Assembly (NCBI GenBank): GCA_021234155.1
Contig: JAJEKV010000064.1
Location: 1,490,001-1,554,000, forward strand
Reading direction: 5' to 3'
DNA: 64,000 nucleotides
Source: Isoetes taiwanensis
Taxonomy: Eukaryota; Streptophyta; Lycopodiopsida; Isoetales; Isoetaceae
The position numbers were made by a program, and so were the translations under genes. Of this stretch, positions 15,829-58,898 are shown in pieces. Within the stretch, counting starts at the first letter, position 1, and each line of letters starts with the position of its first letter. Below the pieces are notes generated by a model. The model ran no database searches. It was not told the DNA's origin and saw only the letters and a list, made by a program, of their open reading frames with translations.

Positions 15829-15964
15829 GCTCTGATACCATATTGAGAAACGAGAGTTGCAAAGCACTAGACACAAAGAAGACGAGAGTTTCTATTCATT
15901 GTCAAAACGAAATACAAATAGACGGGTCCCTTAAAGTTAGGAACAACTACTAAATGCTCCAACA
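15829..15964 (-). mobile_element. Short LTR (121 bp) with initiator-Met tRNA primer-binding site
   Basis: Read on the minus strand, a segment beginning TGTTGGAGCATTTAG at 15964 and ending TTTCTCA at 15844 is followed by ATA and TGGTATCAGAGC (15840-15829), the complement of plant initiator Met tRNA. TG...CA ends, small size and position beside the primer site indicate the 5' LTR of a TRIM-like or copia-type element. No second LTR was found to the left, so the element is broken. Confidence 0.7.
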
Positions 15965-15984
15965 AAATCTATCTACTCTCAACG

Positions 15985-23960: not shown

Positions 23961-25159
23961 CTGATAAATCATCAAATACTTTCCATTTATAATTTGACGT
24001 GGCATGGGTTTTGCAATCAACATCCTACACTTTGGGGCCAAGGAATCGAACCTCAGATCAACCATACCCCATAAGTGACATGTGAACCCTTCATGCGAAG
24101 GGACTATTCCCCACCTCTTTTATACATTAGCTAATGATACTAGGAAGCACGTAGTGGAGCTTTTGCTCCTTGAATTTCAAACATTAGCAGCCAAATCTTC
24201 AAAACTGAAGGCATTCCATTGTGCAGCTTCAATATTCTATGATAAGGTCTATGACAAGCACTCATCAATAGCACTAGTATATGCAGAAATCGATATGCAT
24301 TAGTTGCTTAGAAGTCCTTCCTTGAATCACCTTCTTTCCACACAGCCGTAGGATCATCACCATTTGTCTGTGATGCTTCATTTTCGAGAACCAATAGGGA
24401 TCAACTTCTTCTTTGGTCACCTACAAGAAAGAGGTTCAAAATACATTATTCAACGTGCAGTATATGCAATAAAACAATTAATTATTGACAGCAAGAAATG
24501 ACCACTCTAGCTAAAAAAATGCATACCAAACATGTAGAGAAATAAAGATGCAGGACAGGGTATTAAGAGCATAGTTGTCCCATATACATGGACACAAATG
24601 GAAAAGAACCATAAAATGCTAATTCTATTCCTGACAATACCCTGATGATAAACAAACTAGAGAAATAAATATGCACAACGAGGAAGCCATCTCAGATACA
24701 CAATATGTCCGTCAAGAAATCTCATTTCTTTGTTAAAATCTTGATACAACAAGTTCTTGGCTTCTACACGAAATACAGCATCCTCTATGACGATACTCTG
24801 CAGAATTGAAAAATACAAAAATTGCTACAAATGAAGGTATAATTCTCTTTACCTTTCTGCTGCATCTGCATCATGATCCCGTCCATGACAAAAATGGAAA
24901 GGATATGTTTGATAAACCCCACGGATTTAGAAACAGAACAGCCGGATTTGGTGCAGAGGCATCTTTGGTGCAGAGGCATGGGCACAAGGAAACGATTTGG
25001 TAGATAATAGGGTGGATCCGGAACAGACAAAGCCAAGAAAGCCAGAATAGAGAAAACAGAAAAGCATAGAATCTCTCCACGCAACTGGCTGCCGGCTTCT
25101 ATCTTGCACATGCTGTTATCTTGCTGTTGGAAGGAACATGCCACAGCCGGATCTTGCAG

Positions 25160-25450
25160 CCTGATCGCAGCCGCAATCCTCCTGCTCCACATCCATTTCT
25201 TGAAATTTCGGCTGCAAGACAAAAGAAAATCCGGCTGCAAGGGCTGCCGCCATCCTCCTGCTCCACATCCATTTCGATGCAATTCTTCTGGCTGCACATC
25301 CATTTCGATGCAAACCCTAACCCTAAACATGTTTCGTTTGTTTTTTTTTCTATTTTCTTGAGGGTTCTGATGACCTAGGTTTTTTTCTATTTTCTTTAGG
25401 GTTCTGATGACCTAGGTTTTTCTATTTTCTTTAGGGTTCTGATGCCATAT
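25160..25450 (+). repeat. Short direct repeats, possible captured leader
   Basis: cctcctgctccacatccatttc occurs at about 25179 and 25254, with the shorter ctgcacatccatttcgatgcaa following. A 40-base unit (tttttctattttcttnagggttctgatgacctaggt) is repeated three times at 25344-25445. Aaaccctaaccctaaac at 25314 is a plant telo-box type motif. G+C content is higher than in the rest of the transposon, so this part may be captured from a host gene leader. Confidence 0.6.
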
Positions 25451-28400
25451 TCTACTTTCATCATTTCCAAATACTTCTAGATTATCATGGTTGTATGCAG
25501 AGGGAAGACAATATCATCTTGAAGCAATGCATAGCCATGCACTTTATACCCTGCTCTTGCATATTCTTGAAGCAATGCATAGCCATGCTGCCATCCTCAT
25601 TCATTCCATATTATGTAATAGTTATCCAAGGCACCAATGTACTACCTAAAACAAGATCCATATAAAGTGCCCTTTGTGCAACCTCAATAGGTATGTATGT
25701 TTCTACCCGTCTTTAGCAGCAGAGTACACCATTGAGCTACATCTTCTCAAATAATTCTGATGCATGCCCCTCAAATAACTTTTCAGCATATCCCACAATA
25801 GGCAATAGGTGTGTGACATGAGATATTAATTAAATTTACAAGGCATCTTAAGCTTCTAAGTTAAGCCCCATTTTTGGCATATAAAGTGTTCCTCAAAGTG
25901 AGACCATTTTCCATTATATTAATGCATATTTGGTGGCATATATCCATGGCTCCCCATTTTCCACTATCTATCTAACGTATATTTGGTGGCACGTGTCTAT
26001 AGCTCCCCATTTTCCACAATTTCTTAGACGGAACATAAGCTCGACAAAGATCCTGGATGGATATCAATGCTTCTAAATCAAATCCATAATCCACGCACAA
26101 CGCAATTATAGTGGTCCACGGATTGAAAGTTTGTGAGTGATTTGCAGATTTTTGAGAATGAACTTGAGATTTGTATCTCACGTTCATTCTTCATAATACT
26201 AGAGCTCTCAGAAGTCGCATTTTTTAACAAGATGCCTAGCAGAAATAGGGAGCAATTCGAAAAGCATTGAATGCACTCCTAAATGTAGGGTCCATTCCTT
26301 CTATTCTTCATTAGGAGAAAGGGATATTTTAGATCCAATACCAAACTATCGATCTATCTCTAAAAATCTCTACAAATTGTGTTCAAACAAGCAATCTGAA
26401 ACAAAAACCTTGCAAGTGTAACTTTCTTGCATATCCTCTTGAATAGCTAAGGCGGTACCTTTTCATGGTTTCTGTTGCAAATTTGGCATACCTTCCACCC
26501 TTGAATGTTCTCGAGTTGCAAATGTATATGGACCATTTTGCACATGCTTGTCGGATTGCAAAACAAAATGCTTACCATTTTTTGTTGGGTTTCCTTTGCC
26601 AAAAAGGATTCTTGACGGTCTTGATGCCCTAAATGCAAAGTTGGCCTATAATATTGCCATTGTTCTAGCTCAATCAAATTAATGCTCGGTTATAAGGGGG
26701 GATGCGAAGGCATTTTTATCAGAATCTTTTGATTTGCATGGTCACACGATCAGAATATTGGAAGTCTAGCAGTATAAATAAAGCCACATCATATTTTATC
26801 ACTTTAACAGACACAAGGATATGCTAAGAATCAAAATAATGTTTCACCTCAGTTTAGGCAAGTCTGCTAAATTACTAAAGACTATATCTATAGTGGATTG
26901 ATAACGGTTACTTATGACAATTGTTTTTTGGATCCCTTAAATGAGTAACTAGTATGGATAGCTGCATCCTTTTAGGTGATACCTATGAATGATTACCCCA
27001 AGTAACTCTGTATTGAAAACTATGCTACAAACTACAACCATTTTTTGTAACATACATTGTGATAATAGAAAACTAGCATAAATGACCACAATGGCATTTA
27101 AATTGGTATAAAAAACCACGTTATGGACTGTTTCAACTTCTCCAAGCCATGTGACAATTGAAAACCAAGGTAAACAATCATTGCCATCTTTAAAGTGACG
27201 TTGAAAACCATGTTATAAACCATTGTCAATTTAATAAACTAGGCTATGCTAAAAAACCAACATGAATGACCACCACGATGCTAGAAACAATGTAAAAAAC
27301 TAATAACGGTTCTAATCAACCATGCTATAACAAAAAATCAACATGCATAACCATGTACTAGTTATGAAAACCACTATGTTATGTGGTTTTTATTAAGAAT
27401 AAAATGTTTAGCATAAAAAACCATATCCATAGTGGTTTTTCAGTGGTTTATTATAGTGGTTAAATTTTTGGGTGCCTTGCATCCACTCTAACTCTAGCTT
27501 GAGTATGAGCCGGCTTATCTGGACGATGACTTCCTGATCCCATGTCTCTATTGTACTCAGAACTATCTCTAGTTCGCTTAAGAATTGTTTCGTTGTTTCC
27601 TCCAGAACCTGGATCTGTGGGGCGGATTCCAGTATGCAATATAGTTGAATTGACTGCATTAACACAAACTGAAGGACTTACATTGCTAGTAGCAGGAGTG
27701 CCTAATCTTCGAATCAATGTAGCCAATCCAGGACCCGTGCCAACAAAGTTATGTTCTTTATGTGCTTTGCACGTTGCACTTTGTAATACAGCTTCTGTCA
27801 GATCATGTAGACAAGCATCATACAAGCTTATCTTATTGACATAATCTCTTGATGCTAACCAGCTGGCATGCCTAGATTCAGATAAATTTGTGTTTGGTAT
27901 TTGAGCTGCTGCGACTAGATCAACATCATCATGCATGAAATTACCCCATCTACTAGCTCTTTGGTGCCACCATGCAAGCCAAGATCCCAATTCCGGTAAA
28001 TCTCGTGGATTAGCTCTCCCTGGCCACCAAGATATAATATTTTGATATGCTCTTTCAGCTTCCTCTACAGATGCTGCTAATCTCCATGCCCTGCATAAGG
28101 TCAAATGCTCTTGCCTATGTTCATGAATAATAAATTTATTTGTATGTCTCTGTAGACACTGCTCCCAATGAAATTGGCAGCCACGTTCTCTTCCTTCCAT
28201 TGGCTGACCATCATTAAATACCAGGCGAATGGCATTCCAATTAGCTTGAGCTTCATCAGTCATAAATCCTCTAAATTGGGCTGGCTTCGAGCTCTTCAAC
28301 AACATTACATTATTTAGCTTCTTCCAAAACTTTACTTGTGAGGCAGTATCTTCAGTTTTCATCTCACATGTTGCTATTATCAATAGACAACGCATACTGA

Positions 28401-29999
28401 AAATTAAAGAAAAAAAGAAGAAGTAAATAACTGTTTGTTATCCAATTCCCTAAAATGAATAAGAAGTCCAAGAAGTACCCGAGATCATAAACATGACAAG
28501 CCAAAGTTGTCCATCCAGATATACGTTTAACATGGTCAAAATGAATCCAAGCATTTTCCAAGTCACCTCCAGGGCGCATTCTATTGACAAGCTCGACGCC
28601 AGATCCAGGACCAGTTGTGGACATTTTGAATATATAACATCGACCAGTATGTTCGTCATGAAGTTGGTAAGGAAACTTGGATCCATGAAAAATTTGATAT
28701 TTGCAGTACTGCTTTAAGTAAAGAATCTTTCCAATCTCATCTTTCCGTGTGGTGTGACACTCTAGTGTCTTATTTATCCATTGACGTATCCTTTATGAAT
28801 AAGAAAAAAGTAGTCCAATATTAGAAGAGATACATTTTAAATTACCAATGTCAAAAGGGATCTATAATAAGAACAATACCTCCGTTTGTAGCAACAGAGA
28901 GGCTCTAGTTGTCTCAACAACCCATCAATTTTTTCTCTGTCCCAAGCCTCCTTTGTTGATATCAAGTTATTGATTGTTAATTCCATGGCAACCTCCTTCT
29001 CTATTTCTTTTGGCCCTTTCTTAGCAACAGATCCACTAGACTTTGATTGAACCATTTGCTGCATTTGCACCAGTTCTTTACGACTTGGTAGAAATCTAAT
29101 AGGATGTTCATGTTTTCTGACATGAAGAGCCAATCTAGTGTACCTAGAATTGTCAGGCAATACATAATATATTATACATTGGCATAATGCGATGCAGGAA
29201 GGTTGTTCATCACAATATTCACAAGCCAGTACACCTGCATCCTTAGACAACGGGCCAATAGTAGGTTGCTTTTTCAGGGTTCCCTTCCACTGGACATCAT
29301 TTGCAAAACCTCTAGAAAGAAAGTAATCACAAATAGGATTCATGCATCTTATATGTCCACAACATTTGGAATATTTAACGACACCATCAAATGCTTGACT
29401 TGTTTTCTCTGGTTTGCTCCAAATGTATGGGTCCATCTTGCGATCCATTCCAGTCATGGACTTGAGCACAACAGGAGGCAATTCAAATACCATAGTACCA
29501 TTATACTGAGATGGTAGATATTCTACTTCTTGTGCTATCTGTACTGACTCACAGATTTTTTTCAACTTACTAGTTCCAACGCTCCAAAAGATTGACTCAA
29601 ACGTTGATAGAGGCTTCTTCGACACACCTCGATTAGGACTTTCAATCAATATGGGTGCTTCAGGAGTGCTGATACAAATGGGTGTACCTTCTACAGAAAC
29701 AAAGTGACCATTTACTGCAAAAGCTTTGTAGATAGCTTCACCCCTGTCATTGATAATCTCTTGAAGTCGTAAGGATCTACCTTCTTGACCATTGAAGGAT
29801 TGAATTACACATAGCCCTGCTGATTTAAATTGAAAACTATCACAAAGCCATTTTCTACTCATACAAAAAAGATTCTCAAACGCTTTCCTGGTGAAGTGAT
29901 GATAACATCAGTTTCGGTGAAGGCCAGAACATCGCATTCGTTTAGATCCATGGAAAGGTCAATAGAAAACTAAGATCAATGCCACACTTCACTTTAACG

Positions 30000-30300
30000 T
30001 TGTCAACGGATTTGTCATACGGATTTGCCATAATCATAAGAAAGTATACTCCTTTAATGTTTGTTGACAATAATGGATGCATTAGTGTTGGCAATAACGG
30101 ATTTGTCATCCATATGGAATATGGATTGTAGTTATGAATGCCCGCCATAATCATAAAAAAATATGCTCCTTTAATGTTCGTTGAAGTGCAATAGTGGAAT
30201 ATATAGTGCAATAGTGGATGTTCGTTGAAGTGCAATAGTGGAATATATAAATAGTGGAATAGATAGTGCAATAGTTGAAGTGCAATAGTGCGAAAATACG
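30000..30300 (+). repeat. Direct repeats of GTTGAAGTGCAATAGTGGAATATATA
   Basis: Several copies of tgaagtgcaatagtggaatatata-like units at 30182-30295, and a longer duplication (gccataatcataa-aaa-tat-ctcctttaatgtt) at 30027-30063 and 30146-30180. These sit just upstream of the MULE transposase start and may be part of its terminal region. Confidence 0.65.
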
Positions 30301-30530
30301 ATGTATCCACAAAGAAAAGCAAAGTTATTGGAAAGGATATTTTTGAAAGCATTTTTAAGAGACGAAACATTTTTGAGACAAAGATAAAAAAAAAAGGCAA
30401 GAAACGAAAGCCATCTGGAAGCTTGGTCCTACTGCTCAGAAGTCTGCTCCGACACTCGAGGTAGGAATCCAGATTTTCAGCCCACATGTTTGGAATCGCC
30501 CAAGAGTAATAGAGCAAAAGCAAATAAAAT

Positions 30531-30786
30531 CATGGCTAATACTTCTGGCACCCAGGATCTAGAAACATTGCTAGAAGAGGATATCCATGGAGGAGACAAT
30601 GAGAAAGTACAAATCGAAGACAACAAAAATGATGCATCAGAGCCAGATGTGCAGCAAACTCATATGTTGGAAGATCCGATTCCAAAACCACAACAGGAGT
30701 TGGCAAGAAAGAGGCAGCGCAAATCAAAACATCATGATGCAAAACTTGCCACATATGAAAGTTTTTTATTGCATTGGTTTGTTTGA
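30531..30786 (+). CDS. Hypothetical acidic/basic open frame, partial
   Basis: From the ATG at 30531 a frame of 84 codons reads MANTSGTQDLETLLEEDIHG, continues acidic, then basic (ELARKRQRKSKHHDAK) and ends LATYESFLLHWF. The composition (hydrophilic start, then nuclear-localisation-like cluster) is typical of transposase or gag N-termini. It stops where sequence behind the H3-like cassette begins, so it is probably truncated. No family is recognised. Confidence 0.35.
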
Positions 30787-30889
30787 TGATATAGTTGTGG
30801 GGACAAAATATATCAAAGAACACGCATAATGATATAACTTATATTCATAAAGTGCAATAAATTCATAATAAAGAGAGAAAAGTTTTAAT

Positions 30890-31268
30890 CTATTCTTGGA
30901 ATCTTCTATATGCCGGGTTGTCTTCCAAGAATTTCTTTACTTGGGCTGCGCCAACTGTTCTCCCCAAGTTTCTAAGGATGTTGGTGGGCGTACCATCTTG
31001 GAGTGCTGTCACCAGGTCTTTGATCCTTCTATCCGACGTGTAGGCTGCAGTGACGACCAACCTGCCATGTTTGGAGGCAGAGAAGGTCTACCAGAGAAGG
31101 TCCTATCTTGGCATGGAACTCGGTCATGATCTCTTGGTAAAAAGGTGTGGCATTTATGGTGGCATCCACATCGATCTCCTTTTGGAAAACAGTGAAGATC
31201 GAGTTGATGTCAGCCTCAGCCACATGAGCAGTGGCGCTGTACCATCGCCTGAATGCAGAAGTGGCCAT
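30890..31268 (-). pseudogene. Small unknown gene downstream of the H3-like frame
   Basis: The ATG at 31268 lies in a good context (catcATGGcc) and is the first ATG after a TATA box. The first frame reads MATSAFRRWYSATAHVAEAD, INSIFTVFQKEIDVD and PFYQEIMTEFHAKIG. Within about 31060-31090 the frame shifts by one, and the second half reads SKHGRLVVTAAYTSDRRIKD, LVTALQDGTPTNILRNL and VKKFLEDNPAYRRFQE before TAG at 30890. The product would be about 125 residues, mostly helical and without a signal peptide or membrane segment. I do not recognise it. The own promoter, same strand and position 620 bases behind the H3-like stop suggest both belonged to one element. Confidence 0.5.
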
Positions 31269-31371
31269 GATGCTGATGCTGCTAGGGTTAACAAACAGAT
31301 CTGGAAGCGCCTCTGGGAGCTGATAGATCGCCTTGAAGTGAGGAGTGATGGAGTAGGATGCAAATGAGGCT

Positions 31372-31425
31372 TGTGGTCATATTTATAGGCAAAACCCTAA
31401 TCTGAGAAATTCTTAGGGTTTGAGA
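31372..31425 (-). promoter_or_regulatory. TATA box with two telo-box motifs
   Basis: On the minus strand AAACCCTAAGAATTTCTCAGATTAGGGTTTTGCCTATAAATATGACC places CTATAAATA (31387-31379) about 110 bases ahead of the ATG at 31268, with a telo box (AAACCCTAA) and its inverse just upstream. Plant telo boxes are common in leaders and promoters of cell-cycle and translation genes, and histone genes are S-phase regulated. The regulatory link is inference. Confidence 0.55.
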
Positions 31426-31891
31426 ATATCTATGCCTTCAAGGTCCTGCTATGCAATTGACAGGTAATCTAGGTTGAAGAGTACCTCCTGATGATCTTAT
31501 CTAATTTGGAGGTACTTGGGATGAATTTGGGTCATTTTGGTCTGACCACCCACACAATGCACGAGAGGCTCTAAAATTACAATCTAAGGATGGGATCCTA
31601 CTTATCTTGCCGAGTTAAGGTGGTTTGTGCCCTTACTTTCTACATTTGGACAAGTCTAGACATAGATCAGTGGCCAAACACTCACATAGTGCGCGAGAGG
31701 CATTCTCAAAACTTTTGGAAATGCTCCTGGCGCAGTCTATGAGGGGTAGGGTCCAAAATAGTGACTTTTTTCCAATTTAACTAATTCCAATTGCACATGC
31801 CGTTATTACAACCTCATTAAACACAATATTACACTTCACAACGTGATCAAAACATATTTACATTCACAAAGATTTTTACAGTTACATCAAG

Positions 31892-33045
31892 TTAGCAATC
31901 TTCCTTCTTTATGAACCTAGCTAACTTCATGTCTCTCGGCATACAAGTGACTCTCTTCGCATGGAGAGCACATGCTAAGGAATCTTCGAAGTGCTGGACC
32001 AGCCTTTGCTCTGTTGCCTCCTGCAATGCAAGTAACATGTCATCTGTTACTCTCTTTGTCTTGTCAAATTCTTGCAGGATTTCACGGGTGAGTCTTGCAA
32101 AGGCAGCTCTTGGAATCAGCAGTCTGTAGCTCCTCTGAAAATGACGAATCTCCCAAGCTGCTCTTGCAAAGTAGGAGTCCGCTTTTCTCCTCATTGGTTT
32201 CTTCGGTGTTATTAGTCTCTCCGGGGGCGGCTTCAGGGTATTCTTCTTTGTCGGCCTTCCTCCCTCCACGTACGTCACCTTATTCGCCTCGTAAAATTTC
32301 GAGCACTCCTCGTACATCTTCATGTACTCATTGTACTCCTTCAACTTCTTCCTGTACTCCCGCTCGTGCTTGAGTACAAAGGATTCCCGAGCCGGTCTGC
32401 CCTTCTTTGGTTCAGTTGTTGGCTTTGGCCACTTCGGGTTTGGAGGTGCTGCTGCAGATTCATCCTCCTCCTCCTCTGGGATTGAAGGTCCGGAATCTTC
32501 TGTTGGGCGGGGCACTCTTGACGCATCCTCATCCAAGTCTATGTCCGATGAAGACGACGGTGGCCTGTCGGCTCTCGCTCCCTTATGCTCACCCCTTTTA
32601 CTGGTGTTGACTTTGTCTTCCTCCGGGTTTTCTTGGGCATTTTGGGGTCCTTCCCTTTGGCCTCCTTCAACTTTTGCTGCTCCTCCCTTTGTCTTTTGCG
32701 CTCCTCCCTCTCTGCAATTGTCTTCCTCTTCGCTGCTCTCTTATTCTTGGCCATTTTCTTCAGTCGACGTGCTAGTTCTTCTGGAATCGGCTCGCCCTCC
32801 TCGTCATCCTCTTCCTGGTCATTTCCTTGATCCTCAGGGTTTTCTTGATCATCTGGCTCCTGGATTTGATCTTGGGCGTCCTCCTGTTGTTGGTCTCCTT
32901 CCCCAACATCTGGATTAGGGTTAGGTTTTTCTGCATGTCTGGCTCATTCTTCAGCCTCTCTGGCCTTCTGTTGAGCTGCAAGGACTTGGGCGCTGGTATA
33001 ATTGTCGGGCATAACCACTGAAGCAGTTTGTTTGGTGCGGGCCAT
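31892..33045 (-). pseudogene. Histone H3-like protein with H3 tail start, long charged insert and C-terminal H3 fold
   Basis: The ATG at 33045 opens MARTKQTA, identical to the first residues of histone H3. It is followed by VVMPDNYTSAQ, an acidic Gln-rich segment (QEEDDEEGEPIPEE), a Lys/Arg/Glu-rich helical segment (MAKNKRAAKRKTIAEREERK), a Ser-Asp stretch (SSSSDIDLDEDAS), a Lys/Glu segment, and then a complete H3 core at 32206-31895. The core matches H3 alignably and without gaps: WEIRHFQRSYRLLI, FARLTREILQEF, MLLALQEATEQRLV, HFEDSLACALHAKRVTCMPR, then DMKLAR. The Cys of the alpha-2/alpha-3 region (CA.HAKRV) is kept, and loop 1 has no insertion, so it resembles ordinary H3 more than CenH3. 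The total is about 385 codons against 136 for H3. This copy has an in-frame TGA at codon 34 (CGA to TGA would explain it) and a one-base frameshift near 32595. No intron is evident. Confidence 0.85.
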
Positions 33046-33142
33046 GTTTTGAAATATGTCAATCGCCTTCTGGGCGCCTAAAAATTGCCTTCTTGGCCGG
33101 AGAGCAGCTAGCTAGAGAAGAAAGGTGAAAATGAAGAACCCA

Positions 33143-34479
33143 TCCCTTGGGACTGTCCTAGCTGTGGAAGCATGAGTAAACATAAGCACATGACATTAAT
33201 ATATCAACAGAGTCACCTCGAAAGGTGACTACACCATAACATACATGTAATAGCACATCAATAACATCATCATCACATCGGGAATCCTACCCAATGGCTC
33301 AGACTCCAGGGTATGGACTGACGGCTTGGGCCTCCAGAAGTCATTGCAGACAGAATTCATAAGAACGGATTAGGCTGACATAGAAACATGGCTGTTGGGT
33401 CCACTCCATCCGCCCCTCCCGTGCACACTTTGCAGAGTAGATTGAAGAGTCTAGGGACCGAACCGTAGCCTGTCGGGTGTGTAGCCAGAGGGGCTACTGT
33501 TGGGTTGCATCTCCCCAGCCCGATGAGGCAGGAGGAGAGTCTCCTCCCCTTCAGAGGCATGCATGCCCATCACAGGCAGCCAGAGGGCCACTGCCCGTAT
33601 TCGACTTGAACCTCATTGAAGGTGACGCATCACCCAAGAGGTGTCGAGCTCATGCCTTGCCCACACGTTGTGGAAAACCATTAAGCCTAGCCTGCTAAGA
33701 TCCCCGGTAGGCTTTACACACCAGAGGGATCAATCAGTGATGGGACAAGTCCCCCTTATTCCACCGGTCTAGCCCCGCCACTCACAACCAGGCGGGCTCT
33801 TGTACACGGGCCGCACTAATTGGGAATTAATGACATCTGCTACAGAAGGTTTCAGTGTCTCTACCCCCCTTCCCACATACACAGGAGAGCATAGAATGGA
33901 AAATCATCATCATCAAAGAACTGAAATACTGAATAAGATCTAATCTATCTTACCTAACCTACGTTATGGCTGGTGATCTTAGGATCTACAAGGCTGCTAA
34001 GACTGATCTAACATACTATCCTAGCTCATTGCGTGCTAAGAGTCAGCTTTGCACAACAGAATCGCATGTTACCTGATCCTTGGCTGGCTCTAGCCCCCCG
34101 AATCGCGTCCATGCCTTCGTTCTTGCTGAAGACAGCTGCTCCTCAGGAATCTATTGTGCAAAGACGACTCAACAACGCCTGGCAATGCGGAATGGCAGCT
34201 TACCTTGGCGGAATGGCTCAGGGAATCCAAAATGCGAAAGGGTTTTCCCTTTTGTTCCTTATACATGAAGTTTTAGGGTTAGGTTACAAGGAACCAAATG
34301 GGGTATTGCCACTTGGCAAGGTGTTTAATTTCATATGTTTAATATACATGTGCAACATACGAGGTTGTCCCCTAGGAGCAACACTTTACGGCTCTCAAGT
34401 ACTTGTCATGGTGACATGTACGTGTGACGTGGCAGTATAATATATGTATTCGGACCGTATGTTATACTGGAACGTCACA
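33143..34479 (-). mobile_element. Truncated gypsy-family LTR
   Basis: On the minus strand the LTR starts TGTGACGTTCCAG at 34479, directly after a polypurine tract. Most of 33143-33880 matches 47188-47935 (shared landmarks: gactgacggcttgggcctcca, ccactccatcc, gaggcaggaggaga, cacccaagaggtgtcgag, gggaattaat, ctctaccccccttcccaatacac). The LTR at 47022 extends about 166 bases beyond this homology to a TG end. Here that terminal part is replaced by the leader of the H3-like frame. A TATA-like tgtatattaaac lies about 140 bases in. Confidence 0.7.
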
Positions 34480-34492
34480 ATCTCTCCACCTT
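34480..34492 (-). promoter_or_regulatory. Polypurine tract
   Basis: AAGGTGGAGAGAT on the minus strand immediately precedes the LTR TG. Such tracts prime plus-strand synthesis and mark a 3' LTR, so the internal region of this LTR's element should lie to the right. Confidence 0.6.
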
Positions 34493-34795
34493 GGATTGAT
34501 GCTGTCCTCAGCATCACGCGTCTCCCCACCTTGGAAACATGCATACCCTGCAATACATTTGATGCATATAATTTTTACAAGACAATCACCCCAAGGTAAT
34601 ATTTATGTTTAATTTTCATAACACATCCTTATCATACTATGATGAGGGGACCTTTCACCCTCTTACTTTATCATCTATTATTCACAAAAACTTGTGATTT
34701 ACACCATTATTATAATCATAGTTCCAAAATTCTCTAATTAAGGTTCCATTTGTTCTCCTTGCAACACATTATGACAAAACATGTGTTGCAAGTCT

Positions 34796-36467
34796 GATCT
34801 TAAAATAGGTCTTCATAAAACCTGCGTGTCCGGCTATTGGGCTATTGTGTGTGTCATGGAGTATCAACTTCCTGATTCTTGATGACTCTGGTACACACAA
34901 TTTATTTTTATGGTACAACAGGTTACCTTCCTTCTAAAAATACTTGAAGGTTTCCCTCTCTTTGTCCATTCTTGCCTCCTTAGAAAGACTTGCCCATGCT
35001 TCCTTGAAATCTCGGTCTAGAGGCAATGTCTCTTCTATCTTCTTGTCAAACTTACTGATGAGTGTTGATATGGCATTGCTGTGGACTCTCGTCGTCAAGG
35101 GATGCCTTGAGAGCGCATCCACAACCACATTGAGCTTGTCTGGCTTGTACACAATGATAAAGTCGTACTCCTCCAGGAACTCCATCCATCTCCTTTGCCT
35201 CAAGTTGAGATGTGGTTGGGTGAAGACGTATTGTAGACTTTGATGGTCCGTATCCAATTGAAACTTCCTTCCCAATAGATAATGCCTCCATATTCTCAAT
35301 GCTCTCACCACTGCTAGCAACTCCTGATCATGGGTTGGATAACGCGTTTCGGCATCATTCAACTTCCTTGAATCATACGCTACCACCCTCCCTTCCTGCA
35401 TCAAGATCCCTCCTGTTGCAATCTTGCTGGCATCTATTGCCACCAACTTATCTTTCTCTGGATCAGACAACATTAAGACTAGCGCAGTCGTTAAAGCTTC
35501 CTTCAACGTCTCAAATGCTGCATGGGCCTTCCTTTGCCAATGACTCGCCCAATCTTCTATTTTCTCCTCTTTGATGAGGTCTGTTAGTGGTCTTGCTACC
35601 TTTGCAAAGTTCTATGAACTTCCTATAATACCCTGCTAAGCTGAGGAAGCTCCTGACTTCATGGATATTCTTTGGTGCCGGCCAATCAATTACCACTTCG
35701 ATCTTTGCAGGGTCGGTGGAGATCCCTTCTGCTGTGATCACATGCCCCAAGTACTTTACCCTTTCTATCGCGAAGTGACACTTGGATAGCTTCGCATAAA
35801 GTTGATGCCTTCTCAACTTTTCAAGTACCTTCCTCAAGTGTTGAGCATACTCCTCTAAGGATTTGCTGTAGACTAGAATGTCATCAAAGAAAACTATGAT
35901 GAATGTATCTAGAAATTCGCGAAAAACATCGTTCATGAGCCTCATGAAAGTTGCTGGAACGTTGGACAATCCAAATGGCATCACTGAGAACTCGTAATGG
36001 CCATATCTCGTCCTGAAAGCAGTCTTATGGATGTCCTCTTCCTTGATTCTGATCTGATGGTAGCCTGAACTCAAGTCTATCTTGGAGAAAACATTTGCTC
36101 CTTGCAGTTGATCCATCAAGTCATCTGATTGAGGTAGCGCCTACTTGTTCTTGATGGTGTGCTTGTTCAATTGATGATAGTCAATGCACATCCTGAGACT
36201 TCCATCCTTCTTCTTGACAAAGAGTATTGGCGCTCTAAATGGAGAGACACTAGGTCTTATAAACCCTAGGTCTAGCAACTCCTGCAATTGCTTCTTCAAT
36301 TCCGTCAACTCCTGAGGTGACATTCTGTAGGGCGCCTTACTTGTTGGCTTCGTTCCTGGCTCAAGTGCTATTTCACACCTGGAAATAGCCCTGCATATGT
36401 GGAAAACGTGAGGGAATATCTTTAATAAGTATTGATGGTGCATTTGGAAAAGGTGCTCGACTCCCAA
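34796..36467 (-). pseudogene. Ty3/gypsy reverse transcriptase-RNase H polyprotein, damaged
   Basis: Order on the minus strand: RT palm start ([40 protein letters not shown]), a TAG at about 36139 where the family has Tyr (NKYPLP), then [40 protein letters not shown], the catalytic FFDDILVYS, and GYYRKFIE. A one-base frameshift near 35610 follows. RNase H is next (VAIDASKIATGG, HDQELLAVV, LDTDHQSL, VVDALSRH). A stop at 34934 is followed by an in-frame remnant of the integrase zinc region (LYHKNKLCVPESSRIRKLIL; GHAGFMKT), ending near 34796 in unrelated sequence. At the 5' side, a SINE-like piece interrupts the polyprotein at about 36455. Not functional. Confidence 0.9.
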
Positions 36468-36612
36468 CTAGAAGGTTGCGAGTTCAAACCCTGCTCTGTG
36501 GGCTTATCCGGGTAACGTCAATGAAACTCCACAACTTTATCAGGAGCATTAGTCAGATTCGCAGCAGGCTCCCAGTTTCCATCACTTGGTGAGTAACCTT
36601 AGCTCAACTGGT
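36452..36612 (+). mobile_element. tRNA-derived SINE fragment, rearranged
   Basis: aggtgctcgactcccaactagaaggttgcgagttcaaaccctgctctgtggg resembles the anticodon-to-T-arm half of a tRNA, including a box B (gagttcaaaccct, about 36482). A separate box A-like ttagctcaactggttc sits at 36597. The order (B before A) shows that the tRNA halves are split by sequence between them, so this is a broken or circularly arranged SINE. It lies inside the gypsy polyprotein. Confidence 0.5.
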
Positions 36613-37450
36613 TCTAGATCCACAAACTCCACCTCCTCATCTTTTCTTCCTGTTATTGGAGGCTGGATCTCAGTGTAGGTCCCTTTGACATCCCCAACAC
36701 TATTCTGCTCCGAGTTCTTCATTTTCATCAGGAAATGACTCACAGGAACTTATTCTGGTCCTGATGAAACTGATCTTGTCTGTGTCTATGTCAACTGACA
36801 CCACATTATTCCCCTAAGCACAATTTCATTATTTTTGGACAATACCTGAATTTATGGACCAATTTTTTAATGGTCGCAACAATGACTCTTTTTCATACAC
36901 TAATTGACATTCTGTGAGTGCTGTATATGCCTCAGCAGCATGCACGGGTATCTTGATAGTATTGGGTATCTTCTTCTTGTTTGATGACTCCCAAGCACAG
37001 TCGATAGTCTCCAGTTCTATGCGCCTACTAGCAGTTGTTGGCCTCCATATTTTCTTCCATCAATTGGCATAATTAGCTGGGTATACTTGGTTCCTCACAG
37101 GCACTGGCTCCCAGACCAGAATAGTCTCAAAATTCTCCTTCTTATCATCCATTTGTGGCTCTTCAGTAGCTAGACCTACCCAAGTTGGACACAAAACATC
37201 ATCCGGGCGTGCCATAATAAACATCTTCAAATCTCTGTATGGATTGAATTCTGGTACAGGTTTGTCCTTCCATAGACCGACATAGGGATGCTAGCAATGG
37301 GTTCCACCACTACCGCTACATCTGGTGGAGCACATTCCTGCCTAGTGTGTGGCCATAAGTCATCATAAGTAGCTCGACAGAAACCATCTCCGGCAGTTCA
37401 TATTGGTGATTCAGAATATGAGACTTACTCTAGTCGTAGGAAGTCTGAGG
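36613..37450 (-). pseudogene. Probable upstream part of the gypsy polyprotein, heavily decayed
   Basis: On the minus strand short stretches read like retroviral protease-to-RT linker sequence (for example KIPVHAAEAYTALTECQLVY near 36950), separated by many stops. The position directly upstream of the RT fits. Nothing more specific can be identified. Confidence 0.35.
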
Positions 37451-39850
37451 CTACTTGGTAGCTTTGCACATAGGGACAATTTATCCTTTGGGCTTTAAAC
37501 TTGTACCTCAGTCTGATGTACTTGTTTTCATGATTTAATGATGATATATTCTGTTGGAGAAAGAACAGTTGTTTTCATAATTATTAAAGCTATTAATGAC
37601 AATTTCCAACTACAATGTTACTCATCAGCCAAGATTTAAGAAGGCCGAAGGAATGCAGAAAGTGCCAAAAGCTGATATGGGCCCAAGTAAGCGGAGCTAA
37701 AGGCACGGGCAAAAACAGCCTTCGCTGTTTGAGAATCTGTCTCAGAGATATTTGCAACATGTACTTAAATTTTATTAAAAAAATATTGGACTTCAGTTGG
37801 GCAATTGTTTTTAACTCTAATAAATGATGTCTTCTACATAAGAAGTGGTTTCGTATCTTTCACTGTCCTATAAAAGAGGATGAAGCTCCGGATTACCATA
37901 CCATTGTACAAAATTCCTTGGATGTTTCTATCCTTCTACAACATGTCGATAGTGTACCGAATCTTACAAAATGAGATTTTTTTGCAAGTTGTGGAGCTCA
38001 TTCCTGTCAATGCCAAGAGTCTTATCTCTAAATTAGTGGCCTTAAAATTTTTCATTCTGCGGAGCTATGCCAGATGTAACATGATGCTGATTACTGATTT
38101 CTTTACTAATGATAGCTCTATCTTTAGAAATGCGATAAAGTTCTACAAGTTCTGGATCTCTGCCTTCTGCAGATATACATGTTTCAACTTACAAGTTGAA
38201 GAAAGTATGTCGACTTGTTTTTCCTGTTTTGGAGGTCGGCTATGGCACAAAGATCTTCTTGAGCGTCTTTGAAGCCCTAAAACATGATACAATCTTGCTA
38301 ATGCATCTATGAATAAGCAGCAGAAAGGTCGTGTTTTTGTCAAAATGTTTGCTTTTAAGGTGGCAGACACATGGACATGTAACAAGATGGATATAGTGGA
38401 TGTTTACAGTATGGAAGGACGATTTCTTGGTCGTAAAACAATACCCAACATCAAACCTATATATAAGTTCCTGTATAAAATATGTCAAGAAAAAACCAGT
38501 TTTTCAAAGTTATTCAATACTAGCGAAGCAACTTTTTAAGTTGGGGATTGAAGCTAAAAGATGTTAAAAATGCTTTAAAGTGCTAACTAATTGGGTTGAG
38601 TTATTACTGTCTGGCCACATTATTGTGTGAAGCAAATATCTAGATATGAAGCTTTGATCAAACATATGAATGGACTAACAGCAAAACAGTTTAAGCGTTT
38701 TAACAACAAAATAGTTGGAAGCATTTTTACATATTTGAAGCCTTTGCAGCTGTCAGTTATTACTTTATTACTTGGCGCCCACATGCTGGAATATTTTGCA
38801 CCCATGCCATGAATGTTTGTCCTGTGTCATTGTCAATGAAGCTGAGCTTGAGCAGGACCATGGGAATATCCAACAGGCAATGTAAGTTCATATCATACAA
38901 GCTTGCAAACACAATCTCAACCAGAAGTTAGATTTGCAAATATTTAACAAAAAGCAAAGACAACACTAAAACCCCTTAATTGCAAAATTTCGCGTTCTAC
39001 CTCTCCCATGACCGAGTTGTTGCCTTCTATTATGTTGTTATGTGGATGAATCAATCTCATACTCTATTACAATGGAGAAAGATGCATGCCTACTTTTCTA
39101 TGCATTTTCCATGCTTGCATTTTCCATGCTTGCTTTTCCACGCATTTGTGCGTGTTCAGACTTACAAACTATGGGATTCCTTAGACTATATAGTTTTATT
39201 ATAATTGCGTTTTGGGCATTTTTGCGATCACCGCATATTCACTTGTGTATGATGACATAATACCATTGAACCCGACCTTAAGCTGCAGCTAAGCTATTAA
39301 GTTCTTTGTCAGTGGCATCAAAGTTTCTTTCCTGCTACCATACATTGAACCGAATGCTTGCAGATAAAGTTCTCTTGAACGAGATACAAAATACAAAATA
39401 TTTTGTCCTTCAGTTATGCAACACTTCCACTAATATTAAATTGCTCCATTTCCAACCTTTGCCTATGCCTTTTCCAATAACATTATGCAACACTACAGGG
39501 GGAATTCGTAGTGCTTTGGCACCTTGCTTTTTTAAAGATGGGTAGATAGCAGTGTGTGCCGAGTTCCTAGGAACACTAGCATCCTACCTGTTGAAATCAA
39601 GAATTTCCGATAGAGAAAAAAAATTCCAAGAAGTTTTTCGGTCAAAATCCGTGGGTTTCTTTATATTTTTCCAGATGAAATCTAGTTTTCATAGGCCACT
39701 TCTGCCTAGCATAAATTATACAGGAAATATACTTCTTGTGCTTTTAGAGTTTGGCCTACACTGGTAGATAGTTTAGGAACTGATTGTCTTGGATAATTTT
39801 ATGTGAAGAACAGAATGGTCATTTATCCATCAAAACCATAAAAAACTGTC
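37451..39850. other. No gene recognised; AT-rich 3' flank of the subtilase
   Basis: Several plus-strand frames of 60-130 codons exist (for example 37880-38272), but their composition is AT-driven and none resembles a known family. A short repeat tgcattttccatgcttgc occurs near 39100-39130. Confidence 0.45.
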
Positions 39851-39880
39851 CGAGATTTTGAAGGATGATTTTGGAATTTT

Positions 39881-42133
39881 CTAGTGATGATGTTTCGGCA
39901 CGTTAAACAGGATTGTGATTGGACTTCGAATTACGTGCCTTCCTCCATCAGACCAAATTAGGGCTCCACTCACGAAAGAAAAGTTGGAGCTTTGGTCCGG
40001 AGTGGTCGCCCTTACCTCCACATCAAAGCCTAGTATGCGATCGGCATCTGAAAATACAAGCACAGGTGGGTTTACCGTCACATTCGTTCCATCCGGGGCT
40101 ATAACAATCGCACTGTAAGTTGAACTGTTATCGCCCACATTTGTCACTTTTCTTCTAAATATGATGGATTCAGTATCAGATATAGAATTAAACACAGCGG
40201 TGAGAGATGGGTAGTTGAATTCATCAACACCCGACGTTATGTTAGGGCACAAGACAGGAAATGTTTGAGTGATAGTTGCAATATCTAAAAGGCTATAGTT
40301 ATGCGCACATAGAAAGTTGATGTAGAGATCATAAACAAGACCAGGAGTGAGAGCTTGTTGTGGGTTAACATGTCCTGATCCATAGGCAAATACATTAGCA
40401 AATAGATCTGTTGATCCATCAGATATATTGCTGCCAGTATTATCATTGGAATAAGCTGTGGTCATGATGGCTGATCTAATGGCAGCAGGGCTCCAGTCAG
40501 GATGAGCAGCCTTGAGTAAGGCAGCAACTCCACTTATGTGAGGACATGCCATGGAGGTACCTGAATCTATGTTGTACTCAACTCTTCTGTTGTCAGCAGA
40601 CACTGATAAGGGCGAACCAGTCCCTGACCATGCTGCTAAAATATTAAAACCAGGAGCAATAATATCAGGTTTTAGCACATCTGGATTTACCCTACTTGGA
40701 CCTCTGGAAGAGAAATAGACCACCTGCGGAGCTGGCTTTAATCCAATATATGTTCCAATAAAACTGAAGGTAGCAGAAGGAAGTGTGGTAGAATTAATAT
40801 ACTTTCTTAATTCTATTCCCTTTGCATGTGTAACTGCTATTCCAGGTATTGTGTAACTGATAGGGTATATGCTATTCCCTGCAGCTAATGGCATAATTTC
40901 GATCATGCCTATTCCTCCTGCTTTTGAAACTACATTGCCCAGGTAAACCGAACGACCGCGTCCACATAATACTAGTTTTCCTCTCACTTGGTTGGGATCT
41001 AAACTTTTTGAGTCACATTTACTAGAATAAACAAGTGGGAATTGTTGGTTTTTCAAGCCTTCTCCCCCATATAGTGATTGGCCTTGAATTATGTCCCCTG
41101 TTCCAAGCACCATAGAAGCATCAAATGATCTATCTACTGTGCCAGCCCCAACAGATGTAATCCATGGTGCAGCATTGCTAACAGTCCCAAGTTTTGGTCC
41201 CAAATTTCCCGCTGAAGCTGAAACAAAGACTCCATGCTTCATTGCAGCAAAGGTAGCAATTGCAGTGAGGTCAATTGCATAGGGAAGATGGCTGCTATCA
41301 CCCAAGGAAATAGAAATAATATCCACTCCATCTGCCACAGCCTGGCCAATTGCAGCAAAAATATCAGAATAATAGCAACCGAACTCCCCCTCTCCCCAGC
41401 AAACTTTGTATATGGCGATTCTAGCCTTAGGGGCCATTCCTCTAGCAGTGCCCTGTGCAAGTCCAAAAAAGCTTGCATTTGGAACAATACTTCCAGCTGC
41501 AATTGAAGCAGTATGAGTTCCATGGCCATTGCTATCTCTTGCAGATTTATAATCAGTGCTCCAGTTAAGGTCCTCAAATGAGGCCTCGTATCCCTGGAAA
41601 TAGTATCTTGCCCCTATTAGCTTTTTGTTACAATGTGAGGAATTAAATTCAGCGCCAGGCTGACAGATTCCTTTCCACTTCTGAGGTACTGGCCCCAAAT
41701 CCGTGTCCCTAAAGCTTGGACTCTCAGGCCATATGCCACTATCCACTACCCCAATTATTACATCATTGCCGAAATCAGTTTGAGGCCAAATTCCAGAAGA
41801 TGAAGTGAGAGACAGGAATTCTGGTGTATGTGTGGTGTGGAGTTCCATCAATTGGTCTTCAAACATGGCCACAAATCCAGGCATTTTTTGCAGTGCAGCA
41901 ACTTGGGTTGGAGTCATGTGAGCTGAAAATCCATTGAAGGCTGTGTTGTAGATGTGTATCAACTTTGTTACACCAGAGGAATATAGTTGCTTACATTCAG
42001 ACAAAACTGCTGGCATTTTCGTTTTGTCCATCAAGATGATATAATGGGGCAGGTCTAGTGCAGACACTACAAGGACTACAAGGGACAGGGTTAGTCCCAA
42101 TACATGCAAGTATTTGCTTGTGTGTCTGTCCAT
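39881..42133 (-). CDS. Subtilisin-like serine protease (plant subtilase), intact
   Basis: 750 residues, single exon, ATG at 42133. Residues 1-25 form a signal peptide (LGLTLSLVVLVVSA), so the enzyme should enter the secretory pathway and act in the cell wall. An inhibitor_I9 propeptide follows (HYIILMDK...IYNTAFNGFSAHMTPTQVAA; about 30-103). The S8A domain has catalytic Asp131 (VVDSGIWPES), His204 (NGHGTHTAS), oxyanion Asn310 (SASAGNLGP) and Ser527 (GTSMACPHISGV). The protease-associated domain is inserted around 345-460, and YFSSRGPS is at 473-480. The fibronectin-III-like C-terminus spans about 645-745. Many N-x-S/T sites are present. Length and order equal a typical plant subtilase; no stop or frameshift. 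The absence of introns is common in the SBT1 group, but I cannot assign a subgroup. The decayed relative at 15985-17476 shows past duplication of the family here. Confidence 0.96.
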   Translation of the reverse strand: MDRHTSKYLHVLGLTLSLVVLVVSALDLPHYIILMDKTKMPAVLSECKQLYSSGVTKLIHIYNTAFNGFSAHMTPTQVAALQKMPGFVAMFEDQLMELHTTHTPEFLSLTSSSGIWPQTDFGNDVIIGVVDSGIWPESPSFRDTDLGPVPQKWKGICQPGAEFNSSHCNKKLIGARYYFQGYEASFEDLNWSTDYKSARDSNGHGTHTASIAAGSIVPNASFFGLAQGTARGMAPKARIAIYKVCWGEGEFGCYYSDIFAAIGQAVADGVDIISISLGDSSHLPYAIDLTAIATFAAMKHGVFVSASAGNLGPKLGTVSNAAPWITSVGAGTVDRSFDASMVLGTGDIIQGQSLYGGEGLKNQQFPLVYSSKCDSKSLDPNQVRGKLVLCGRGRSVYLGNVVSKAGGIGMIEIMPLAAGNSIYPISYTIPGIAVTHAKGIELRKYINSTTLPSATFSFIGTYIGLKPAPQVVYFSSRGPSRVNPDVLKPDIIAPGFNILAAWSGTGSPLSVSADNRRVEYNIDSGTSMACPHISGVAALLKAAHPDWSPAAIRSAIMTTAYSNDNTGSNISDGSTDLFANVFAYGSGHVNPQQALTPGLVYDLYINFLCAHNYSLLDIATITQTFPVLCPNITSGVDEFNYPSLTAVFNSISDTESIIFRRKVTNVGDNSSTYSAIVIAPDGTNVTVNPPVLVFSDADRILGFDVEVRATTPDQSSNFSFVSGALIWSDGGRHVIRSPITILFNVPKHHH

Positions 42134-43320
42134 GAGGATGAATGCTTGCCTTGTCCCGTGCAGAGAGCAGAATGTTTAGTTTGGCCTTGAGCTGTCGTAG
42201 AAAGCTTTTTAGTAGTTATCTTGTAGGCAAAATATGTATGTCAACATGTAAAGATTAATTTAATTGCAAAGGATCACAACCAAAAAGAGTTAGGATGGAG
42301 TATTCTAACGATTGTGTTCTCTTGGAAATTAAAGTATTTAATTTATATTATAAATATATTTATTACAAAATAGATTGGCTAAAATTCCAATAGTTGAATC
42401 AACATTGCGTGAAAATCCACTATTACACTGTACATATGAGAGATGGTATAATTACAATATTGCCCCAAGGGGTACCTTTAAAGGAATGAAGATGCATAGA
42501 TTAACATCCGGCAAAAAGATGTCATCCACGTAAAGAGGAATAGAATAGAGTAGAATAGAATAGGCTTTTAGAGTTGAAGATGAAAAGAGTTTAGTGGAAG
42601 GAAGGAAACATATGCTTTCTAACTATTCTATTGCTATGGCTTTCCTAACCTAGATTTTGGCATATCCAATGGAATATGCCACATGAAGGGTGTCTTCATT
42701 CTTCATTTTAGAATTGACAAATAGATTTTTTCCACACGCATACCTTGATCAATTTTTGTGGATCAAGTTTGGAGTGTTAATTGCAACTTAAACCCCTATA
42801 TGCTTTTCACATTTATCCGCGAATCAGGTTCGAATTGATTGTTTAGGCATACTTTTTCCCATTTTATTTTGATTTTAGATGGATGGATAGATATATATTA
42901 TTTTAACGTTGTTGGGGACCTTACAGTGGGCCATGGGACAAGTCTATACATCGTCCCTAATGCACTATATGAAAACATTCTAGTGACCATTTTTGTCTAG
43001 TAGTGGTTCATGATATCTTCTATCCTTATTCTTGCATAATTTCACTTTGATGGTCTAATGCAAATTTGACTACCAGTTAAGTGGTATCAAGTTCTCCACT
43101 TTTTTAAATCAATATCTTAATATTTTGATCAAGAGAACTGCGTATATCGAAGAACTGGGCCTTCTAAGGTGGCAATGCATCAAAGACACAAAATATTATC
43201 CTTTTTATAAACGGACAAGAGAAACCAATAAGATGAAAAATAAAAGTCCTAGTGAAATTTGGACCATTTAGGGGGGTAAATAGCAAGTAATTCCGAGAGA
43301 AGTTGCAAAAATGGTCAATC
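42134..43320. other. Subtilase upstream region, no other gene
   Basis: On the minus strand the first 200 bases carry AT-rich words (for example ACATATTTTG near 42236) but no unambiguous TATA box. A short gaatagaatagagtagaatagaatag repeat is at 42538-42565. No gene is seen. Confidence 0.45.
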
Positions 43321-47021: not shown

Positions 47022-47935
47022 TGTGATGTCCCCTGCTCGTATACGATGCTCCCATCGTATAGCACTGGGGTTCATCCATCCTGTCAACGCCCTCGCTGAC
47101 ATGATGACGTGCACCTAACATCAGATCCTTGCTAACAGACAAGAATCCAATGGGGAAGGATGGATGTGTCATTCATCCCATCTCCCTTGGGACTACCTAG
47201 ATGTGGAAGCACATCAAACATGAGCACATAACATCAAATAACATGCATATCCACCTCGAAGGGTGGCTCACCATAATATAACATTTGTAACAACAACATC
47301 AGTAACATCAACATAAGGGGAATCTTACCCAAGACTCAGACTCATGGGGATTGACTGACGGCTTGGGCCTCCATAAGTCAATGCAGACATAATTCATGGC
47401 AAATGGATTGAGCTGGCATAAGAACATAGTCGTTGGGTAGTCCACTCCATCCCCCCCTCCTGTGCATACTTTGCAGATAGACTGATAAGTCTTAGAGCCT
47501 GACTATAGCCTGCAGGTTGCATAGCCAAAGGGGCTACTGCTGGGTTACATCTCCCCGGTACCCGATGAGGCAGGAGGAGATCACTCCCCACCAGAATATG
47601 CATGCCAGTCACAGGCGGGCTATAGAGGCATTGCTCATCTATGACTTCAACCCCATTGAAGGTGATGCATCACCCAAGAGGTGTCGAGCCCATACCTTGC
47701 CCACACTCAGTGGCAAATTATTAGGCATAGCCCACAATGTTTCCAGGTAGGCTTTACACACTAGAGGGATCAACTGTAACCGGACAAGTCTTTCTTGTCA
47801 GCCGGTCTAGCTCCACCACCTACAGCCAGGCGGGCTCTTATGCACAGTCCGCATTAATTGGGAATTAATTAGGCCATCTAGGTACATCATCTACTAAGGC
47901 TTTTAGGGTCTCTACCCCCTTCCCAATACACAAGC
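47022..47935 (-). mobile_element. LTR related to 33143-34479, truncated
   Basis: On the minus strand it ends ...GGGGACATCACA at 47022, the counterpart of the ...GTGTCACA end at 59247. It runs to about 47935, where similarity to 33880 stops and a CACTACTACAAAAA sequence begins. No primer-binding site follows the end at 47022, so it is a solo or broken LTR cut by another insertion. Confidence 0.75.
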
Positions 47936-49668: not shown

Positions 49669-49831
49669 GTAGAAATGGCACAAAAGTGACCTTTATGCTC
49701 CGCCCTTTTATGGAGCATAAACGTCACCTTTGTGCCATTTGGGGAGCACAAACGTCATAAATGGCACAAAAGTGACGTTTATGCTCCGTAAAAGGGCGGA
49801 GCATAAAGGTCACTTTTGTGCCATTTCTACC
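49668..49831. repeat. Nested palindrome (73-bp arms, 18-bp spacer)
   Basis: Arms 49668-49740 and 49759-49831 are complementary with about two mismatches. Each arm is itself internally inverted: atggcacaaaagtgac-tttatgctccg appears twice per arm in opposite directions, so the unit occurs four times. It begins exactly where the preceding inverted repeat ends. Confidence 0.92.
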
Positions 49832-58496: not shown

Positions 58497-58898
58497 CTAG
58501 CATAGAATGCATACGCCTTCCTGCACATACACTAAGACATAACAAAGCTTAGCTAAAGCACCTGACAGGTTGGCGTCGACCAATTCAGAGATGACTTGGT
58601 CGTCGAATTGCCTCATGAAGTCCGGGTATTGCTGCTCCTCTTGGCTGGGCGAGGGCGTGCCAAGCACGATCGTTTCGCCCGTTCGCTGTGTGGCCTCCGA
58701 CGAGCTGCTAGGCGCCTGCTCATGGGAAGAGTGAAAGGTTTCGTTCGTGGAGCCGGACGAATCGTGCTGCTCTTCGTCCTCCCTCCCGGGCCTGAGGTGC
58801 TCCGGGATCTTCTTGCTGCTCCCTGCTGCTATCTTCGCCATGCTGGGTCTCTGTCTGGGGCTCCTATATTTCTTGGTTGTACATTTGGTGCGAGCCAT
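58497..58898 (-). CDS. LTR-element first ORF beginning MARTK, gag position
   Basis: The ATG at 58898 lies 336 bases inside the primer-binding site of the 59247-60847 LTR, so the frame is in gag position. It begins MARTKCTTKKYRSPRQRPSM, basic like the H3 tail, then reads GSSKKIPEHLRPG (compare H3 GGVKKPHRYRPG). A Ser/Glu-rich segment (SSGSTNETFHSSHEQAPSSS) follows, then EEQQYPDFMRQFDDQVISEL and an end at 58497. No histone fold, zinc knuckle or capsid motif is visible in the 133 residues. Whether the H3-like start is descent or chance is open, but it echoes MARTKQTA at 33045. The frame is complete to its stop but may be truncated relative to its parent. Confidence 0.5.
   Translation of the reverse strand: MARTKCTTKKYRSPRQRPSMAKIAAGSSKKIPEHLRPGREDEEQHDSSGSTNETFHSSHEQAPSSSSEATQRTGETIVLGTPSPSQEEQQYPDFMRQFDDQVISELVDANLSGALAKLCYVLVYVQEGVCILC

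What the first reader, a model, noticed from the sequence alone, without database searches (positions are those of the whole stretch)
31892..33045. An oversized histone H3-like gene: H3 tail start and H3 fold separated by a ~270-residue charged insert
Seen: the reading frame opens MARTKQTA, exactly H3 residues 1-7 after Met, and closes with a gapless H3 core (HFEDSLACALHAKRVTCMPR). Known: H3 is about 136 residues. CenH3 variants have longer tails but do not keep ARTKQTA and usually have a longer loop 1. Inference: this is a novel H3 derivative that could be H3K4-readable/modifiable and enter nucleosomes while carrying a long charged arm. I know of no described protein with this layout, but I cannot search. 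This copy is broken by one TGA and one frameshift, so a living copy should be sought elsewhere in the genome.
Basis: partly seen in the sequence, partly recalled or inferred. Interest (0 to 1): 0.93.

Follow-up and report, generated by a model that had tools for sequence, protein, structure and literature searches.

The report
Broken long-tailed histone H3 variant gene
The window holds one broken gene for a histone H3 relative that keeps the first eight letters of H3 and its folded core but has about 270 mostly charged residues between them, a layout close to that of plant centromere histones but much longer.

Summary
On the minus strand a frame opens MARTKQTA (33045), runs through a charged region with one in-frame TGA (32946-32944) and one frame change, and ends in a genuine H3 fold (32203-31901; Pfam Histone E 3.7e-21; 48.5% identical to a typed plant H3). 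MARTKQTA is expected 1.4e-6 times per window by chance. MARTK, hypervariable tail and divergent H3 fold is the CENH3 plan; a tail of about 280 residues is what stands out. CENH3 membership is not established: PGTVAL, the longer loop 1 and introns are absent, and of 25 columns that separate typed H3 from typed plant CENH3 the core sides with each at 6. It lies behind a truncated retrotransposon LTR; a second MARTK frame also follows an LTR of a related family, so a transposon link stays open. No other copy could be sought: the protein search was off and the genome search did not complete 11 of 11 times.

The parts
32947..33045 (-). first 33 codons, MARTKQTASVVMPDNYTSAQVLAAQQKAREAEE; H3 residues 1-8, then no H3 match
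32944..32946 (-). in-frame TGA stop
32620..32943 (-). charged segment in the frame of the ATG, acidic then basic; 30 D+E and 26 K+R in 108 residues
   Evidence: no Pfam family above its cut-off, best PDB match E 0.31, both for 32539-32943
32542..32740 (-). zone in which both frames are open; the frame change lies in it, by the protein text near 32620-32555
   Evidence: exact place is inference
32207..32578 (-). second charged segment, in the frame of the core; 25 D+E and 24 K+R in 124 residues, with a predicted helix
   Evidence: helix at residues 117-152 of the 282-residue piece in a low-confidence single-sequence model, mean pLDDT 51.8
31901..32203 (-). H3-type histone fold
31892..31894 (-). 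stop codon that closes the core frame
33046..33142 (-). 97 nt between the last clearly LTR-like base and the ATG; possible 5' leader
33143..34479 (-). LTR that starts TGTGACG; 33143-33883 is 78% identical to 47183-47932; its last ~150 nt are missing or too diverged to recognise
   Evidence: start read by eye
34934..36467 (-). Ty3-type reverse transcriptase (35514-36140) and RNase H (34934-35611) frames that end before the LTR; 36141-36467 looks like more of the same by eye; a purine-rich stretch just before the LTR makes it look like a 3' LTR
58500..58898 (-). second MARTK frame of the window (MARTKCTTKKYRSP...), no H3 fold; about 350 nt behind an LTR and the sequence TGGTATCAGAGC

Best explanation
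A decayed, single-exon copy of a fast-evolving histone H3 variant whose layout is that of plant CENH3 (MARTK start, hypervariable tail, divergent H3 fold) but with a tail of about 280 residues. The living protein would pair with H4 through its H3 fold and replace H3 in a subset of nucleosomes, most likely centromeric ones, while the long acidic and basic tail acts as an interaction arm and the free ARTKQTA end can be read or modified like the H3 N terminus. This copy makes no full-length protein. Shown: layout, H3 fold, two breaks, no intron in the coding stretch. Inferred: nucleosome entry, centromeric role, function of the tail, origin as a retrocopy.
For: H3 fold. MARTK is a start of green-lineage CENH3, and the CENH3 N terminus is the one domain that cannot be aligned among close genera. 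Of 6 columns fixed differently in 3 H3 and 3 plant CENH3, the query has the CENH3 letter at 3 (proline of LLIP, the A two further on, the T of RWT/RYT), the H3 state at 1, neither at 2. Long branch, 1.08 substitutions per site. Columns that H3.1 shares with 4 CenH3s are kept in 27 of 38 cases, other columns in 21 of 59, Fisher p 6e-4.
Against: PGTVAL, called defining for CENH3, is absent, and loop 1 has the H3 length. Over all 25 columns in which the two typed groups share no letter the query sides with CENH3 at 6, H3 at 6, neither at 13: no net lean. Described CENH3 genes have introns (7 exons in cereal alpha and 4 in beta genes; 7 exons in cotton); this copy has none. The tree does not place the query. 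The one search test disfavours neutral decay from canonical H3 but neutral decay from a CENH3 would pass it too. A neutral simulation leaves no stop in 319 of 3000 runs, and 987 of 3000 runs have substitutions at least as conservative as observed, so long-lasting selection is not proven. The comparison sequences were typed from recall. The tail matched nothing.
Confidence: 0.45

Rival explanations
1. A divergent non-centromeric H3 variant derived from canonical H3 that gained a long charged insert after residue 8.
For: Best BLASTP score is to H3.3 (85.1 bits; H3.1 83.2; rice CENH3 80.1), H3-length loop 1, MPRD like MPKD of H3. 4 of 15 columns fixed in H3 and varying in CENH3 are H3-like, 2 CENH3-like, 9 neither. 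H3.1 genes are intronless in switchgrass. MARTKQTA matches H3 one residue further than the Chlorella CENH3 start and three further than MARTKH.
Against: CENH3 letters at 3 of 6 fully diagnostic columns; core only about half identical to H3; tail residues 9-36 gone.
Confidence: 0.28
2. A transposon-borne protein: an LTR element family whose protein behind the LTR starts MARTK, one member of which carries a captured H3 or CENH3 fold.
For: Both MARTK frames of the window (2 seen, 0.018 expected; pattern 0 in 100 shuffles) lie on the same strand 97 and about 350 nt behind LTR sequence of related families; the 58898 frame also has TGGTATCAGAGC before it. LTR capture of genes is common: 672 in rice, 1343 in sorghum (passages).
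Against: The LTR before the H3-like frame has reverse transcriptase and a purine-rich stretch before it, so it looks like a 3' LTR; its end is lost and I see no primer-binding site before the frame. No remainder of the LTR was found on the far side by self-comparison or with the ends of the two other LTRs. The two MARTK proteins share nothing beyond MARTK.
Confidence: 0.18
3. Chance: an unrelated MARTK frame in front of a randomly placed processed H3 pseudogene.
For: Only one copy known; two breaks; next to a transposon; the neutral simulation does not exclude decay.
Against: MARTKQTA expected 1.4e-6 per window; the stretch in front stays open over about 280 codons but for one TGA and one shift; neutral decay from canonical H3 disfavoured.
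Confidence: 0.05
4. An endogenised histone of a large DNA virus.
For: A viral single H3 with a tail 35 residues longer than that of H3.2 is described (passage).
Against: No relative confirmed in two scans of viral contigs, which reach close relatives only, or in 50,697 phage records; 'ARTK' does not occur in the viral-histone review.
Confidence: 0.02

Closest known systems
Plant CENH3 (CENP-A family)
   Same: MARTK start; tail that cannot be aligned; H3 fold about half identical to H3; LLIP-x-A and a T before the ALQEA helix
   Different: tail of about 280 residues, where whole CENH3 proteins of 151-172 residues are given in the passages read (Arabidopsis 178 by recall); no PGTVAL; H3-length loop 1; no introns
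Canonical and replacement histone H3 (H3.1, H3.3)
   Same: MARTKQTA; loop 1 length; FED, HAKRVT and LAR motifs
   Different: tail residues 9-36 absent; about 250 extra residues; core about half identical
Nematode CenH3 (HCP-3, HCP-3L)
   Same: H3 fold behind a divergent tail with many motifs (passages)
   Different: tail lengths and starts were not seen in the passages; animal lineage
LTR-captured plant genes
   Same: intronless copy directly behind LTR sequence
   Different: no second LTR and no primer-binding site seen next to it

Membership tests
Plant CENH3 | N terminus MARTK(H) | tested here: met
   MARTKQTA; CENH3 starts in passages. Position 6 is Q, as in Chlorella, not H
Plant CENH3 | H3-type histone fold | tested here: met
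Plant CENH3 | PGTVAL at the start of the fold | tested here: not met
   ADSYFARAAW at that place; motif named as defining
Plant CENH3 | longer loop 1 than H3 | tested here: not met
Plant CENH3 | residues that separate CENH3 from H3 | tested here: inconclusive
Plant CENH3 | multi-exon gene | tested here: not met
   no intron in 1154 nt; 7 exons in cereal alpha genes, 4 in beta genes, 7 in cotton
Plant CENH3 | sits in centromeric nucleosomes | not testable with these tools
   needs ChIP or imaging of an intact relative
Histone H3.1/H3.3 | full conserved tail and near-identical core | tested here: not met
   tail 9-36 absent, core 49 and 50 of 100
LTR element with a captured gene | gene between two LTRs behind a primer-binding site | tested here: not met
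   one truncated LTR, in front only
Any of these | other copies in the same genome | not tested

The most novel reading that the evidence does not exclude
A retrotransposon lineage whose proteins imitate the H3 N terminus (MARTK close behind the LTR), one branch of which acquired a complete H3 or CENH3 fold and so encodes its own nucleosome-entering histone, for example to mark or reach centromeric chromatin.
Probability: 0.1. Interest if true: 0.85.

Novelty: new variant of a known kind. Interest (0 to 1): 0.42.

Why it matters
A CENH3-like histone with a tail several times the usual length would be a strong test case for what the fast-evolving tail does, and if it is carried by a transposon it would tie centromere evolution directly to mobile elements. 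As a single broken copy it is a lead, not yet a protein.

Tried and rejected
Viral contigs scanned with the 282-residue piece, the core, two transposase-like pieces and the neighbouring small gene: none of 13, 11, 2, 12 and 10 pattern matches confirmed; each scan used six short peptide patterns and reaches close relatives only. Prokaryote contigs: none of 51. Phages (core) and plasmids (282-residue piece): no match. tRNA 0 and Rfam 0 in the window. NCBIfam and PHROGs gave nothing above cut-off for the H3-like piece; archaeal histone came at E 0.0023, below its cut-off. Structure prediction from single sequences was too poor to use (mean pLDDT 51.8 and 66.0, pTM 0.24 and 0.28), so no fold search was made. 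A mutator-type element carrying the gene (frames at 29907-27460) was considered: the inverted repeats in 24000-40000 that enclose both are 20-29 nt at 72-86%, no better than expected noise to my eye; weakened, not excluded. A neutral simulation ran on a misaligned pair and is void; one search replaces it and is inconclusive. Ten paper searches showed no long-tailed plant CENH3 and no transposon-borne H3 in the titles and abstract starts listed; four listed only the top 20 (of 27, 584, 157 and 24), and the library misses most subscription journals. Of 15 papers I saw passages found by term, of the others only listings; none was read whole.

Full report
What is there. On the minus strand a frame starts ATG GCC CGC ACC AAA CAA ACT GCT (MARTKQTA) at 33045 and reads 33 codons to an in-frame TGA at 32946-32944; the same frame then stays open to 32542. 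A second frame, shifted by two, is open from 32740 to a stop at 31894-31892 and ends in an H3 fold. The best PDB match is H3 with E 3.8e-20 over residues 179-280 of 282; Pfam names it Histone with E 3.7e-21.

Is it more than chance. By base composition MARTKQTA is expected 1.4e-6 times and MARTK 0.018 times in the window, both strands. Two MARTK starts are present, at 33045 and 58898 (all arginine codons); the 15-base pattern with CGN arginine occurs 2 times, and 0 times in 100 shuffles.

What the tail is. Between MARTKQTA and the fold lies an acidic then basic stretch (30 D+E, 26 K+R in 108 residues) and a second mixed stretch (25 and 24 in 124). The piece 32539-32943 matches no Pfam family above its cut-off and no PDB chain better than E 0.31. 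H3 tail residues 9-36 have no counterpart: tblastn of the typed whole H3 finds at this place only 1-8 and 37-134.

What the core is. The tree leaves it unplaced on a branch of 1.08. In 25 columns the 3 H3 and the 3 plant CENH3 share no letter. In the 6 of these that are fixed on both sides the query has the CENH3 letter at 3, the H3 state at 1 (the CENH3 tryptophan near the end is missing), neither at 2. Over all 25 it sides with CENH3 at 6, with H3 at 6 and with neither at 13. Loop 1 has H3 length and PGTVAL is missing. This is a mixture, and I do not file it as CENH3.

Why CENH3 still matters. Passages in papers show the reverse for the green lineage: MARTKH and PGTVAL are called the motifs that mark CENH3 (PMC9842635); antibody peptides give MARTKHPVARK for poplar (PMC11288735), MARTKQTKPSPSKRGA for a Chlorella CENH3 (PMC11005252) and MARTKHFSS for Chionographis (PMC10264360). 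A maize paper prints a tail that begins MARTKHQ but labels it the maize H3 tail (PMC4814585); by recall it is that of CENH3, and I do not count it. The CENH3 N terminus is called the only domain that cannot be aligned among close genera (PMC4308911). So MARTK, unalignable tail and divergent H3 fold is a known plan. The length is not: cereal alpha CENH3 proteins have 159-172 residues in all (PMC8603533), rye forms 166 and 151 (PMC5732303). Broken CENH3 copies are known too: cowpea has two partial CENH3 pseudogenes (PMC7738545).

Was it alive. Columns that typed H3.1 shares with 4 CenH3s are kept in 27 of 38 cases, other columns in 21 of 59 (p 6e-4; two other choices of comparison gave 9e-4 and 3e-4). 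That speaks against neutral decay from canonical H3, but a decayed CENH3 would pass the same test. A neutral simulation to the same identity leaves no stop in 319 of 3000 runs, and 987 of 3000 runs show substitutions at least as conservative. So a long life under selection is plausible but not shown. The coding stretch has no intron, unlike the CENH3 genes described in the passages read, which fits a retrocopy or an intronless variant.

Surroundings. Before the gene lies an LTR (34479-33143) with Ty3-type reverse transcriptase and RNase H upstream and a purine-rich stretch just before it, so it looks like a 3' LTR. Its part 33143-33883 is 78% identical to 47183-47932, and 33285-33436 resembles 59530-59677 (72%). 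The roughly 150 bases that should close it show no clear likeness to the other two LTRs. The third LTR (about 60847-59247, read by eye) is followed by TGGTATCAGAGC, which I recognise from recall as an initiator-tRNA primer-binding site, and then by the second MARTK frame. That both MARTK frames follow LTRs of related families is either a coincidence of a transposon-rich region or a hint that the H3-like gene travels with, or was captured by, such elements. The evidence does not decide.

Verdict. A confirmed broken H3-family gene with a very long charged tail; most likely a CENH3-like variant, here as a dead copy, with a plain H3-derived variant as the closest rival. It is a new variant of a known kind if living copies exist. 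The organism is not known to me; the subtilases, the Ty3-type elements and LINE-like frames suggest a land plant (inference).

Noticed in passing
58500-58898 (-): Second MARTK frame (MARTKCTTKKYRSPRQRPSMAK...) behind an LTR and a primer-binding-site-like sequence, with a CAG-GTGC inside it that looks like a splice donor; a piece 91% identical to the end of that LTR lies at 57519-57780, so the element seems short and non-autonomous.
   Followed up: partly
30890-31267 (-): Small broken gene behind the H3-like one: MATSAFRRWYSATAHVAEAD..., one frame change, TATA-like sequence upstream by eye; no Pfam match for 31029-31376, none in NCBIfam for 30893-31087, best PDB E 0.5, best PHROG E 0.053.
   Followed up: partly
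27460-29907 (-): Frames that look by eye like a mutator-type transposase with a zinc-finger-like C-C-H-H stretch; no Pfam family above cut-off.
   Followed up: partly
39881-42175 (-) and 15922-17476 (+): An open 764-residue subtilase frame (Peptidase_S8 E 6.6e-51) and pieces of a broken relative in the opposite orientation (fn3_6 E 3.7e-20).
   Followed up: no
49230-49831 and 50710-50816: Inverted repeats: 49555-49668 against 49230-49340 (97%), 49668-49831 with itself (89%) and 50710-50816 with itself (97%).
   Followed up: no
20627-22144 (-): Ty3-type gag and aspartyl protease frame.
   Followed up: no
986-2059 (-): Frame with a match to the inositol-phosphatase beta-propeller family PF23754, E 2e-11.
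   Followed up: no
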